DNA of 64,000 bases. Source: Trissonchulus latispiculum. Taxonomy: Eukaryota; Nematoda; Enoplea; Enoplida; Ironidae. A program made the position numbers and the translations under genes. Positions 22,646 to 36,913 of this stretch are shown piece after piece (the first letter of the stretch is position 1; every line of letters begins with the position of its first letter). The notes under the pieces were generated by a model that worked only from the letters and a program-made list of their open reading frames with translations, ran no database searches and was not told where the DNA came from. The stretch is taken from assembly GCA_030248195.1 (NCBI GenBank), contig JASAND010030285.1, positions 1 through 64,000 on the forward strand, in the 5' to 3' direction.

Positions 22646-23321
22646 TGTGACCAGCTTAATGTTGCCGATTACCCGGGGAAGACTACCGCGAACTACTTGT
22701 ACTACTAATTTAGCTCTATGTCCTAGTGCTCCAGTACCCCCTACCTATAACTGCAAGACCTGAACACAACACATCACCTTTAATGTATAAGCTATTTTCG
22801 CTCACAGCACAACTGTTAACCTCTTCACCGTACCGTTCGATTCCAACACTTTCCTAATTCTTCGAACCTCTGTTCACGCTAAATCGGTGCTACTTACCCG
22901 AACTCGTTGCCAGTGAGTACTATCTCTCCAGGTAAAACCCGGCCTCTCCGCACAATATAACGCAACACCAGTCGGATTGTAAGTGCCCCCTCGCCCCGAC
23001 TTTCACACCATTTTATACTTAATCTTGACCTTTCCAGCCAGATCCGGGGCGGGGATCTTTTTTGTACTCGTCCAGATAACATTTAACGTTCTTTCCTCTA
23101 CGCCCCCGCCCACACCCCTTTTTTGAGTCGGCTCGTTTAATCTTGTTTTTCCAGTTGACGTCACAAAACTGAGAAATTGAGACAAACATCTTAACCTTTC
23201 TAATTCAGATTGTTTTGATAGAAACCAGGATTTTTGACATTTCCAATTTGAGCAGAACCAGATAAACTTGACATTCATGATTCCTTTAAAACTTTTAGCC
23301 TCATGTTTTTCTACTGTTACA
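22646..23321 (-). repeat. 3' LTR of the Gypsy-like element
   Basis: On the minus strand it starts TGTAAC at 23321 and ends GTCACA at 22646, the usual TG…CA termini. It matches 36243-36913 over its whole length, with scattered differences. Its short minus-strand frames are not genes. Confidence 0.9.
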
Positions 23322-23334
23322 TTTCCACCCATCT
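23322..23334 (-). other. Polypurine tract next to the 3' LTR
   Basis: Minus-strand AGATGGGTGGAAA immediately precedes the TGTAAC start of the 3' LTR. This is the expected primer site for plus-strand DNA synthesis and it confirms the element's orientation. Confidence 0.65.
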
Positions 23335-23812
23335 GAAAGTTCGCGTCCTCGCGACCTACCACGACGATTCGTACGTCACAGCGAACAAACGTGACTACTT
23401 CCACTAAATGAAGATGGTACTAGTTCGCTACTACAAATAACAATGAAGAGTCACACACAGCTAACTAATTTTAGACAACTTTTGAACGCAACCCTACACG
23501 AGTGAAACCATGCTTAAAATTGCGCACAGTTCGGACTAACGATGTTTCAGTAGATAACTTCAAGAGATTCCGGTCACAAAAGCAAACACATACACAAAAC
23601 TGAGCACAAGCCTTTTTTTACAGCGATAAAGCGACAAACTACACAAAGCAACAGTTTTGAACATTTTATAAGTTATTTGCTTTTTTTTGGTGGAAACACA
23701 CAAATCCTGTCCATACTGAAATACATGAATCAGTCACGCCTTCCAGTTCCTAGTTCCCTTGTCCACTAGGTCCGGCAAACAAGGCCAGCAGATATTCCGG
23801 CATGTCGGACTG

Positions 23813-24559
23813 CTAACGGGGGATGCCATGAAGGATGGTCGCATAGTCTAGTCCCAACTCAGAAATGCGAGCCCGGAGCAACGGACAGTAACGCCAGGTT
23901 CTATGCGAGTACCCAGCTCCTGTGTGCCCGTTGCCGGGGCAGCCCGGGACAGGACACGATGAGAGTGACGCTGGTCTCGCGCTAGAGGGAGGGTTTTCAC
24001 ACTCCTTCGGTGTGCTTCTGGCTTCACCCGAAGCTGGAGCGGCCTCCGTACGAACCCCTACCGAGGCTCCACCTCCGGCAGCGCCACCGGGTGTGGTGCG
24101 GAAAAGGCCACGAGAAGGCTGCGGACCAGGATACCCTGGAAACGGACAGGGCCCATACGTCGGGGGTGGATAACCATGACGCGGGGGAAATCCAAAAGCA
24201 GAAGGACCAGGTACAAAGGCCTGAATGGGCTGAGTAGCAACGAAAAATTGATCCATGGCCTGTAGCATCTGATTACAAAACATGATAACAAATCTAAGAG
24301 CGGCGGCATAACCACTTAAATATGCCTGATCTAAATACGGCATAGACTCCTGCGCTCCGTGATGTCCAGAGCCCTGAGCAGGCTCGCCGGCCGGTTCCTG
24401 CTCTCCAGGAATCGGAGGTTCCGGTCCATGCGGAGTCATAACCGGCTGAGGGCGATCGTCGTCCGGCCCTCCTTCCTCCTCCATTTGAAATTGGATATCC
24501 ACACAGAGCAGTAACGGTACAGCGCAGTAGTGAAAATTAAATAGTTCCAATAGGTCCAA
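23813..24559 (-). CDS. Accessory gene C: Pro/Gly-rich protein with a MYT1-like C2HC zinc finger
   Basis: An open frame of 248 residues. The start is probably the Met at residue 26 (24484), after which an acidic, Pro-rich tail begins (EEEGGPDDDRP). Residues ~70-115 are a hydrophobic helical segment. Residues ~117-200 are Pro/Gly/Ala-rich. The C terminus has C202, C207, H212, H219 and C225 in SCPVPGCPGNGH…H…C. That is the spacing and CP-PGC-G-GH signature of the MYT1/ST18-type C2HC finger, one residue shorter between the His residues. Such fingers bind DNA in host transcription factors. It is the last gene before the 3' LTR and its frame is intact. Confidence 0.6.
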   Translation of the reverse strand: MDLLELFNFHYCAVPLLLCVDIQFQMEEEGGPDDDRPQPVMTPHGPEPPIPGEQEPAGEPAQGSGHHGAQESMPYLDQAYLSGYAAALRFVIMFCNQMLQAMDQFFVATQPIQAFVPGPSAFGFPPRHGYPPPTYGPCPFPGYPGPQPSRGLFRTTPGGAAGGGASVGVRTEAAPASGEARSTPKECENPPSSARPASLSSCPVPGCPGNGHTGAGYSHRTWRYCPLLRARISELGLDYATILHGIPR

Positions 24560-24902
24560 CCAAGAGTTTATTTATACCAATCCAACCGTTCGAGAAAACT
24601 GAGAATAGCTCAGCTCAAAAGCAAAAGAAAACTATAGTGCGGGAGACTTACTCTGGCTAACTGTCAAATCTGCTCAACTTTATTTTTGCCAAATTTTTGC
24701 TTCGCTCTAAATTTCTAGGTATAACTTAAGTTTCGCTGAGAAAACGTTAAAAACACGGTGCTTCATTTTTCTCTCAGTTCAGTGGGACTTAAACGCCCAA
24801 CCTGAGTTATCCTTTCACTTAGCGCTTTTGGCCGATTGGCTTAGCGCTTACTTTTTCATTGGCCCAGCTAAACCAAGCTGCAGTACTAACAGGCTAGTCC
24901 CG

Positions 24903-25007
24903 AATATATATATATATATATATATATATATATATATATATATATATATATATATATATATATATATATATATATATATATATATATATATATATATATA
25001 TATATAC
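24903..25007. repeat. (AT)n microsatellite
   Basis: About 104 bases of uninterrupted AT dinucleotides inside the accessory region of the LTR element. Open frames crossing it (repeated Tyr-Ile) are artefacts. Confidence 0.98.
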
Positions 25008-34674: not shown

Positions 34675-35560
34675 GGTCCCTTCCCTCGTTGGGGAGTCAC
34701 TAAATCTTACTGATCGGACTACTTAATCTTCCGGGTCCATCTCATCGTAGGTCTCTTGTTCTTTAGCTCTAATAACTGCGTCTTCAAATGGGGTTGGTCG
34801 GCTAGAGAGCACCAACCTCCGAAGGCCTTCGCGGATGCCATTCATAAAAATTTCTTTTATTAAACGGTCCCGTGATTCCCCCTTCATTGTGTTGCCGTAG
34901 GCTTTCCTAACTAAGGTTTGTATCGCTCGAGCAAACTCCTCGACTGTCTCGCCCGTTTTCTGAGTACGGCGATGTAACTCGGAACTTGACGTTGTGTCGG
35001 CCAGTACTTGTACCAATGCTTCCTTAACATGATCCCAGCTAGTTCTAATTCCCGACGGAAGCGTCTCATATGCATCAGCTGCGTATCCCCGCAAGAAAGC
35101 AGGCAAAAGCTTTGCCTTGTCCACGTCTGGCCAATCATTAATGGCAGATATTCGCTCAAACGTTGTTCAACAATCCCTAAAATCATCGCCTATTTCACCC
35201 TTAAACATAGTAATTTGCTTCAAGTCGATCGCACATTTAATGCGATCCAACTCAACTTTTTCATCGGAGGGCATATTAAAGTCAAGCTTTATTCTCGGAA
35301 GGTTACTTGAAATTCCCAACGCAGTGATAACACTCGCAAATCTCGTGGATATGGGGGTCGCTAACTCAACTGTACCCCTTTCCCTCGACTCTACTATAGG
35401 GTCCTCGACAAAGTACTATTCAAGAAGTTCGGAAAAACAGCTACTGAGTGTGGGTTCGCTACGTACGTAAGATCCGTCAGGTGAGCTACTAGTGGGATTT
35501 ACGCTTGTATCCTCAGACGAGATCCTATCACTGTTACTCGACTTAGTCCTTTGTGACGTC
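34675..35560 (-). pseudogene. gag: Gag, matrix/capsid region (frameshifted)
   Basis: Structural protein of the particle. The intact stretch 34723-35124 reads a Ty3/Gypsy retrotransposon-Gag capsid fold: KLLPAFLRGYAADAYETL, SWDHVKEALVQVL, TGETVEEFARAIQTLVRKAY and FMNGIREGLRRLV. An upstream segment in another frame (about 35190-35560) ends in an acidic, charged stretch and is probably the N-terminal part. After an in-frame TAA at about 34722 the same frame stays open into the zinc-knuckle and protease frame. Gag and protease may therefore have been one polyprotein, or separated by a stop codon. Confidence 0.85.
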
Positions 35561-35582
35561 TTCTTTAACTTTTTAAACACCA

Positions 35583-36195
35583 GGGGCCAATTTCATAAAA
35601 GTATAAACTTGCAACTTGCATATGCAAGTTGCAACTTGCACATGCGAGTTACAAGTTAACTGTTTCATAAAGCTGCAAGTGCTACTTGCGGACTTGCACT
35701 AAAACTGCAAATTGCAAGTCCGCAAGTTGCAAGTTGCTGAACAACACTTGCGGTCAGAATCTGTTTCATAAAAACTGTCAGTACTAGCACTTGTAACTTG
35801 CACTTGTAGTGCAAGTGGTTGAGTGAATTTTCACTGACCAAATGGAACAAAATTTTCTATAACTTATTTAATTTTTAATATTTTTTGGAGAAATTTCATG
35901 ACAAGACTCTTTAGGATATTGTCGTAGCACAGTGCAAATTTCAAACAATTTATTTCACTTTTTAAATTTTTATGAATTTTTAAACATTTTTCGTTGACTT
36001 TTTAAAAATCAGCTACTTGCAAACTTGCACTTGAACTTGCGTTTACTAGTTGTCAAGTCCGGCAACTTGCTTAGCTAATTTCCGCAAGTCGAGGTAAAAG
36101 TTTTATGAAACACTGACAACTTGAACTTGCAGTTCAAGTGCAAGTGCAAGCTCAAGTGCAAGTTCAAGTTACAAGATTTTTATGAAATTGGCCCC
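35583..36195. mobile_element. Harbinger-type MITE in the LTR element leader
   Basis: The terminal inverted repeats ggggccaatttcataaa and its complement end at 35583 and 36195. CAG stands on both sides if the outer G is counted as flank, which fits the 3-bp duplications of PIF/Harbinger elements. The interior is made of many copies of a cttgcaacttgca/gcaagttgcaag word in both orientations, that is, subterminal repeats. Non-coding. It inserted after the LTR element. Confidence 0.85.
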
Positions 36196-36221
36196 AGGTC
36201 TCCCCTTTTTATAATTATGGG

Positions 36222-36242
36222 CCCCACACTGGCCACCAAATA
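36222..36242 (-). other. Candidate primer-binding site
   Basis: Just inside the 5' LTR the minus strand reads TTTGGTGGCCAGTGTGGGG, with the TGG expected to pair with the CCA end of a tRNA primer. The matching tRNA is not known from this window. Confidence 0.45.
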
Positions 36243-36913
36243 TGTAACCAGCTTAGTGGTGCTGATTACTCGGGGGAAGACTACAGCGAACTACTTGAAT
36301 TACTAATTAGCTCTACGTCCTAGTCTCTCAGTACCACCTACCTATAACTGCAAAACCTAAATACGACACATCAACTTTTAATGTATAGGCTACTGTCGCG
36401 CACAACACAACTGTTAACTTCTTCACCGTACCGTTCGATTCCCACACTTTGCTAATTCTTCGAACCTCCGTTCACGCTAAGTCGGTGCTACTTACCCGAA
36501 CTCGTTGCCAGCGAGTACTCTCCAGGTAAGATCCAGTCGCTCCGCACAATATAACGCAACAGCAGTCGGATTGTAAGTGCCCCCTTGCCCCGACTTTCAC
36601 ACCATTTTATACTTAATCTTGACCTTTCCAGCCAGATCCGGAGCGGGGCTCTTTTCCTACTCGTCCAGATAACATTTAACTTTCTTTCCTCTACGCCCCC
36701 TTCCACACCCCTTCTTTTGAGTCGGCTCGTTTAATCTTATTTTTCCAGTTGACGTCACAAAACTGAGAAATTGAGACAAACATCTTAACCTTTCAAATTC
36801 AGATTGTTTTGATAGAAACCAGGATTTTTGACATTTCCAATTTGAGCAGAACCAGATAAACTTGACATTCATGATTCCTTTAAACTTTTAGCCTCATGTT
36901 TTCTATTGTTATA
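36243..36913 (-). repeat. 5' LTR of the Gypsy-like element
   Basis: Direct copy of 22646-23321, upstream of gag on the minus strand. It should hold the promoter and transcription start of the element. It is slightly shorter than the other LTR because of small deletions. Confidence 0.9.

What the first reader, a model, noticed from the sequence alone, without database searches (positions are those of the whole stretch)
22646..36913. A 14.3-kb retrovirus-like Gypsy element with host-derived domains and accessory genes
Between the two LTRs are gag, pro, RT, RNase H and integrase, then PWWP and pseudokinase domains, env, and at least three further genes before the 3' LTR. All are on one strand. 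Known env-bearing Gypsy/errantivirus elements carry gag, pol and env, and only a few giant Gypsy families carry extra genes. A Gypsy element with a chromatin reader, a pseudokinase and a post-env gene block would be a complex retrovirus-like system in an invertebrate. This is the strongest candidate for an undescribed system here.
Basis: partly seen in the sequence, partly recalled or inferred. Interest (0 to 1): 0.95.

Follow-up and report, generated by a model that had tools for sequence, protein, structure and literature searches.

The report
Multi-gene endogenous retrovirus with captured Tribbles gene
This stretch of animal DNA is a damaged copy of a retrovirus-like jumping element whose relatives in the same genome carry, besides the usual viral genes, a chromatin-reading domain, a captured Tribbles-type kinase-like domain and three further genes under natural selection, which makes it an unusually complex gypsy-type element.

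Summary
Window 22646-36913 is one LTR element on the minus strand: gag, protease, RT/RNase H, integrase, PWWP, kinase-like domain, env, three more ORFs (X, Y, Z). The window copy is decayed and probably recombinant: its LTRs belong to two subfamilies, no target duplication is seen, and an ~0.6-kb insert sits in its leader. A second copy (C10798) has every module in the same order between LTRs with 2 mismatches in 654 sites, flanked by CAAG, so the block moves as a unit. In relative C263 the kinase-like domain is nearest to Tribbles (TRIB1, 2.5e-40). Of 83 env loci, 53 have PWWP upstream, 20 of them with Tribbles; Y follows env in 57. dN/dS is mostly 0.04-0.4; some pieces reach 0.5-1.8. My paper searches (listings) showed no PWWP or Tribbles domain in a retroelement. 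I read it as a complex-retrovirus-like Ty3/Gypsy lineage: PWWP probably tethers integrase to chromatin, Tribbles probably is a signalling scaffold. Functions are inferred; the species was not identified.

The parts
36243..36913 (-). 5' LTR, of the subfamily seen in C7765/C4107/C13147
36221..36238 (-). putative primer binding site (TGGTGGCCAGTGTGGGGC), a few bases inside the LTR
   Evidence: read by eye; matching tRNA not tested
35584..36194 (.). ~0.6-kb insert with inverted ends (GGCCAATTTCATA...TATGAAATTGGCC) between CCTGG repeats; absent from C10798
34723..35415 (-). gag (Retrotrans_gag), interrupted; zinc knuckle follows near 34393-34437
33757..33996 (-). aspartic protease domain
   Evidence: E 3.6e-4, below curated cut-off
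32498..32981 (-). reverse transcriptase, split over two frames
31924..32311 (-). RNase H, split over two frames
30555..31607 (-). integrase (H2C2, rve, C-terminal SH3-like; rve and C-terminal part below cut-off)
30213..30398 (-). PWWP domain fused in frame to the integrase C-terminus
   Evidence: 1.9e-10; same domain in the C263 copy:
29084..30053 (-). Tribbles-like kinase module, frame broken in this copy; ~0.1 kb present in relatives is missing near 29117
   Evidence: Tribbles identity shown on the C263 copy
27008..28990 (-). env-like gene: RxxR site, membrane anchor; frame broken in this copy
26074..26911 (-). ORF-X: Ser/Arg-rich middle, S(I/L)(T/S)GRFK motif; split in this copy, one 280-aa ORF in C10798
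25237..25887 (-). ORF-Y: 217 aa from its likely start, no known family; 47 invariant residues in 5 sequences
23816..24571 (-). [not shown]
23322..23333 (-). putative polypurine tract (GATGGGTGGAAA)
   Evidence: read by eye
22646..23321 (-). 3' LTR, same subfamily as C10798 (2.5% mismatches)

Best explanation
The window holds a decayed member of a large lineage of env-bearing Ty3/Gypsy elements that works like a complex retrovirus. SHOWN: LTR-bounded units with gag-pro-RT-RH-IN-PWWP-(Tribbles)-env-X-Y-Z in constant order in the copies read, a recent transposition of one whole unit, and mostly purifying selection on the extra modules. INFERRED: (1) the PWWP fused behind integrase is a built-in tether that binds methylated H3K36 nucleosomes, doing in cis what LEDGF/p75 does in trans for HIV integrase (recalled), and steers insertion into transcribed chromatin; (2) the Tribbles-like module, made as part of or cut from the Pol-Env polyprotein, is a catalytically poor scaffold that engages a host Tribbles partner pathway to change the state of the cell that carries the element; (3) Env is cut at the RxxR site and mediates cell-to-cell spread; (4) X (Ser/Arg-rich) and Z (C2HC finger) are RNA/DNA-binding regulators, plausibly for export or splicing of the genomic RNA as CERV does for Cer1; (5) Y is a conserved lineage-specific protein of unknown fold. 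Steps 1-5 are inference from homology and motifs.
Against: Tribbles window-C10798 ratio 1.00 (7/152 syn, 24/520 nonsyn) and window-C663 0.48 (p 0.06); Y against C7765 1.27; X against C7765 0.70. In one search short C-terminal env pieces give 1.78 (C663) and 0.71 (C10798) for 27381-27776 and 0.70 and 0.47 for 27011-27475. These have few changes, but they do not show constraint. 26 of 83 env loci show no Y in the hit list, 2 of 20 with PWWP+Tribbles and 8 of 33 with PWWP alone among them (contig ends and capped lists may explain part). Catalytic loop Asp is kept in 6 of 11 relatives and the DFG-site Asp in 8 of 11, so 'dead kinase' is not settled. In the window family the PWWP cage position that is Trp in LEDGF reads Cys (Tyr in C263, cage positions recalled). 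No COP1-type VP[DE] motif is conserved behind the kinase (motif recalled). No RNA, protein or infectivity data.
Confidence: 0.75

Rival explanations
1. PWWP and Tribbles are passengers: host exons transduced into Pol, neutral or structural, with no targeting or signalling role.
For: No functional data; cage and catalytic residues vary; the Tribbles ratio with C10798 is 1.0; a PWWP-only group of 33 env loci does without Tribbles.
Against: Ratios of 0.05-0.26 for PWWP and 0.18-0.19 for Tribbles in three of five pairs with a ratio, presence in elements ~40% alike in this region, a related kinase kept as a free ORF in another Gypsy family.
Confidence: 0.15
2. A composite: a gypsy element into which a separate multi-gene block (23.3-27.0 kb) inserted by chance in this copy.
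For: The window copy has no TSD, two LTR subfamilies and a later insert.
Against: C10798 carries the block inside nearly identical LTRs with a 4-bp TSD; X, Y and Z also follow env in C663, C21729 and C263.
Confidence: 0.02
3. The post-env ORFs are host genes that hitchhiked once and spread in one burst, so their conservation only reflects recent common descent.
For: All copies read are from one genome; no other animal genome could be searched.
Against: Y homologues go down to 24-50% identity between families with synonymous sites saturated in window-C21729, yet many frames stay open; 47 invariant positions in 5 sequences, two of them 98% alike.
Confidence: 0.05

Closest known systems
Errantivirus / gypsy-type env-bearing Ty3/Gypsy elements (Metaviridae; features recalled)
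   Same: gag-pol-env order in LTRs, Env with RxxR site and membrane anchor, short target duplication (C10798)
   Different: PWWP and Tribbles behind integrase, three post-env genes, TG..CA termini, Env in one frame with Pol in several relatives; RT phylogeny not tested
Chromoviruses and other Gypsy with reader domains (chromodomain; Tudor in Ectocarpus, PMC12477816, passages read)
   Same: a histone-reader-type domain at the integrase C-terminus
Complex retroviruses (lentiviruses, spumaviruses; recalled)
   Same: several small conserved genes between env and the 3' LTR
   Different: Gypsy-type pol; no related family found for X and Z in Pfam or NCBIfam beyond the weak C2HC finger, nor for Y in Pfam, NCBIfam, PDB or the protein set; no direct comparison with retroviral accessory proteins was made
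Cer1 of C. elegans with CERV (PMC10309623, passages read)
   Same: extra gene between pol and 3' LTR in a Gypsy/Ty3 element
   Different: CERV comes from a spliced mRNA, acts in RNA export and does not resemble Env; here an env-like gene and three further ORFs are present
LEDGF/p75 (PSIP1) tether of HIV integrase (recalled)
   Same: PWWP near the HDGF/LEDGF/NSD group linked to integrase
   Different: here PWWP is encoded in cis by the element
Tribbles pseudokinases TRIB1/TRIB2
   Same: LRDxKLRxWVF-like loop, GCPAYVSP-like and IRRG motifs; E 2.5e-40 for the C263 copy
   Different: fused between PWWP and Env; own N-terminal stretch; COP1-type tail motif not conserved (motif recalled)

Membership tests
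LTR retrotransposon, Ty3/Gypsy type | paired LTRs with TG..CA ends, PBS, PPT, 4-6 bp TSD | tested here: met
   LTRs in window, PBS and PPT by eye; TSD CAAG in C10798; no TSD in the window copy
LTR retrotransposon, Ty3/Gypsy type | domain order PR-RT-RH-IN | tested here: met
Errantivirus | RT phylogeny inside the gypsy clade | not tested
Errantivirus | baculovirus F-type Env | tested here: inconclusive
   RxxR plus hydrophobic stretch in 6 of 6 relatives but no Pfam family above cut-off for five env pieces and no PDB hit for one
Chromovirus | chromodomain at integrase C-terminus | tested here: not met
   PWWP instead
Troyka | CG..CG LTR ends, 3-bp TSD, no env | tested here: not met
   TG..CA, 4-bp TSD, env-like gene present; features from abstract and passages of PMC12440569
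Tribbles family | closest relatives among kinases are TRIB proteins | tested here: met
   met for the C263 copy; for the free-standing C5340 kinase not met (MARK4 1.5e-14, TRIB2 6.7e-13)
Tribbles family | degenerate catalytic and metal-binding motifs | tested here: inconclusive
   DFG site reads GDIS, GDLS, VDVD, GEID, SDVS, SDID or SDVD: Asp in 8 of 11 and Gly in 0 of 11 relatives; loop Asp in 6 of 11; window family reads LRGIKLKG
Tribbles family | C-terminal COP1-binding motif | tested here: not met
   no conserved VP[DE] in the tail; motif recalled
Complex retrovirus (functional sense) | regulatory/accessory proteins made from spliced RNAs | not testable with these tools
   no RNA data

The most novel reading that the evidence does not exclude
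An animal 'complex retrovirus' lineage of Ty3/Gypsy origin that carries its own LEDGF-like PWWP tether on integrase and its own Tribbles pseudokinase, plus a three-gene regulatory block; the Tribbles gene belongs to a retroelement-borne family that also circulates as a free gene in a second Gypsy family with bZIP, exonuclease and NADAR domains.
Probability: 0.6. Interest if true: 0.92.

Novelty: new variant of a known kind. Interest (0 to 1): 0.82.

Why it matters
Accessory-gene complexity is usually ascribed to vertebrate retroviruses (my general knowledge). Here a Gypsy lineage in an animal genome shows it too, with 20 Tribbles-plus-PWWP and 33 PWWP-only env loci to compare. A PWWP fused to integrase makes the H3K36me tethering model testable in cis, and a retroelement-borne Tribbles gives a natural test of what a virus-like element gains from a signalling pseudokinase.

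Tried and rejected
Rejected: separate insertion of the post-env block; Troyka and chromovirus membership; a non-Tribbles kinase as the source of the fused module (TRIB best by 20 orders of magnitude).

Led nowhere: homologues of the window PWWP/kinase part or of ORF-Y in the large protein set, none at threshold; viral contigs for the PWWP/kinase protein, 3 stretches matched a pattern and none was confirmed; PDB for one env frame, no hit at E 1; PDB for ORF-Y, four hits at E 0.16-0.44, taken as chance; NCBIfam for one X, one Y and one Z, nothing. The protein set limits candidate lengths, so these blanks say little about animal polyproteins.

Two of the four 'Tribbles only' env loci lie 5-6 kb from the match and may be unrelated. 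In one search, 13 of 49 rows gave no hit: C7765 for PWWP, Tribbles, integrase and env (4) and C4689 for X, Y and Z (3), where the stretches fetched do not reach those genes; and C263 X, Y and Z against C9752 and C6450 (6), for Y and Z because the partner genes were not fetched, while X was redone. One search also lists ratios for out-of-frame and LTR ORFs; I do not use these.
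Full report
Anatomy. The LTRs are 22646-23321 and 36243-36913, TG..CA type (one end reads TA in this copy); the element is on the minus strand. Pfam finds gag, protease (below cut-off), RT, RNase H, integrase and, in the same 733-aa frame as integrase, PWWP. A kinase-like domain follows, then an env-like gene and three ORFs, X, Y and Z. A putative PBS lies a few bases inside the 5' LTR and a putative polypurine tract abuts the 3' LTR (read by eye).

State of the window copy. 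Gag, RT/RNase H, the kinase module, env and X are interrupted, and ~0.1 kb near 29117 that relatives have is missing. The two LTRs differ by 44 mismatches in 667 aligned sites (6.6%); the 3' LTR is 2.5% from the C10798 LTR; the 5' LTR is 97.5-98.7% identical to the LTR pieces on C7765 and 95-100% to those on C13147 and C4107. The flanks share no duplication. I infer recombination between two elements. Window 35584-36194 is an insert with inverted ends between CCTGG repeats, absent from C10798.

The unit moves whole. The LTR query has 10 matches in the 733.8-Mb own genome, the window's own two among them. C10798:109973-132371 aligns piece by piece with window 22643-35584 at 92.4-96.4% identity; it has a nested insert of ~8.66 kb (115956-124619) at the PWWP, with GAAA at both sides and an integrase-bearing frame inside. 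Its LTRs differ at 2 of 654 aligned sites (20 gap columns, most from my cutting one LTR some bases too long) and CAAG flanks both ends. The whole block is therefore inside a recently inserted LTR unit. Its own frames are also not all open.

A large lineage. With the PWWP+kinase protein the own genome gives 127 matches, with env 103, with Y 110; the tool calls such counts lower bounds. Merged by hand into 83 env loci: upstream (within 8 kb) PWWP+Tribbles in 20, PWWP alone in 33, a Tribbles match alone in 4, neither in 26; Y downstream on the same strand within 10 kb in 18, 25, 0 and 14 of these, 57 of 83 in all. In 31 of the 33 PWWP-alone loci 175-525 bp separate the PWWP and env matches, too little for a kinase domain; two have ~0.9 kb. 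In C9752, C263, C15858, C6450 and C15464 the PWWP/Tribbles match and the env match lie in open frames of the same length (1815-2934 aa), which I take as one frame; searches show it directly for C9752, C263 and C6450. X homologues sit directly behind env in C9752, C263, C15858, C6450 and C10150, and X-like starts are visible by eye in C5484 and C262. Z homologues were seen in C10798, C663, C21729, C263 and C7765.

What the extra domains are. The kinase module of C263 matches TRIB1/TRIB2 chains at 2.5e-40 to 2.1e-39, the next of 949 sequences at 2.1e-19; the window's own broken module was not searched by itself. In the window family the catalytic loop reads LRGIKLKG; others read LRDVKLRN, LRDIKLKN, LCGIKLLN and the like; the loop Asp is kept in 6 of 11 relatives. 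The DFG site reads GDIS, GDLS, VDVD, GEID, SDVS, SDID or SDVD: Asp in 8 of 11, Gly in none. Catalytic death is thus likely but not shown. PWWP of C263 scores 53 bits and is nearest to NSD2, DNMT3B, HDGF-related and LEDGF chains. Z ends in a C2HC finger of the PF01530 type, below the curated cut-off in 4 of 4 copies scanned (window, C663, C21729, C263; E 2.3e-4 to 0.047). X has a Ser/Arg-rich middle and an S(I/L)(T/S)GRFK-like motif in 8 of 8 sequences aligned, C10150 reading PLTGRFK. Y has no family above cut-off in Pfam or NCBIfam and no meaningful relative in PDB or the protein set but 47 invariant positions in 5 sequences, the other four being 40-98% identical to the window copy. Env: an RxxR followed by a hydrophobic stretch at the same place in 6 of 6 relatives (C262 with a second RxxR), a membrane anchor near the C-terminus in the five longer frames scanned, and a hydrophobic segment between Tribbles and Env in C663, C9752, C263 and C6450 but not in the C10150 frame. 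No Pfam family passed its cut-off for five env pieces.

Exchange. Against C663 the window is 96% identical over env and most of X (26251-29117) but 80% over 25263-26259, and Y and Z are only 70% and 50% identical in protein. The 3' genes of these elements appear to be swapped between lineages.

A second family. C13216 holds a Gypsy pol in which Pfam finds no PWWP, then a bZIP-like ORF (1.8e-5), a kinase ORF, and a 747-aa ORF with a 3'-5' exonuclease (1.2e-6) and a NADAR domain (1.3e-34). Its kinase, like that of C5340 (whose surroundings I did not read), aligns with the Pol-fused Tribbles module, including the N-terminal stretch before the kinase fold, though the C5340 kinase by itself scores MARK4 (1.5e-14) before TRIB2 (6.7e-13). 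I infer one retroelement kinase family in fused and free form; this is less firm than the rest. Thirty rows have kinase frames of 364-374 aa; two were read. NADAR and reader domains in Gypsy elements of Ectocarpus are in print (PMC12477816, passages).

Literature., for PWWP, Tribbles or kinase domains with retroelement words, listed 2, 3, 1, 0, 10 and 2 papers; by title and abstract start none reports such an element, and I opened none of them. Searches gave broader lists. I read the outline and abstract plus passages of PMC12440569 and passages of PMC10309623, PMC9289625 and PMC12477816. Only open-licence papers are held.

Mechanism. See best explanation; the anatomy, order, one recent transposition and selection are shown, the roles of PWWP, Tribbles, X, Y and Z are inferred. 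That the host is an animal is my judgement from the genes seen; a COX1-like stretch with TGA and TAA in frame was found, and the species was not identified.

Noticed in passing
G000 C13216:1000-8400 (L064, L062, L065): Second Gypsy family with bZIP-like ORF, free Tribbles-related kinase ORF and an exonuclease-NADAR protein behind pol; 30 rows have kinase frames of 364-374 aa, two of them read.
   Followed up: partly
G000 C10798:115956-124619: Nested ~8.66-kb element inside the PWWP of the C10798 copy, GAAA on both sides, integrase-bearing frame on the opposite strand.
   Followed up: partly
G000 C7765:151-7397 (L016): Head-to-head copy: the 3' part of the element in inverted arrangement, both LTRs with a ~0.6-kb gap at the same site.
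   Followed up: no
window 25263-26259 versus C663: Sharp drop from 96% to 80% identity near the 3' end of X, as if the 3' genes were exchanged between element lineages.
   Followed up: partly
window 37421-37993: DDE_Tnp_4 transposase fragment, E 1.2e-22, beside inverted repeats 36951-37029/37302-37380.
   Followed up: no
window 20000-22540: Diverged direct repeats spaced ~0.3-0.9 kb (D3, D5-D7, D11), next to the 3' LTR.
   Followed up: no
window 24904-25006: About 100 bp of perfect AT repeat between ORF-Y and ORF-Z.
   Followed up: no
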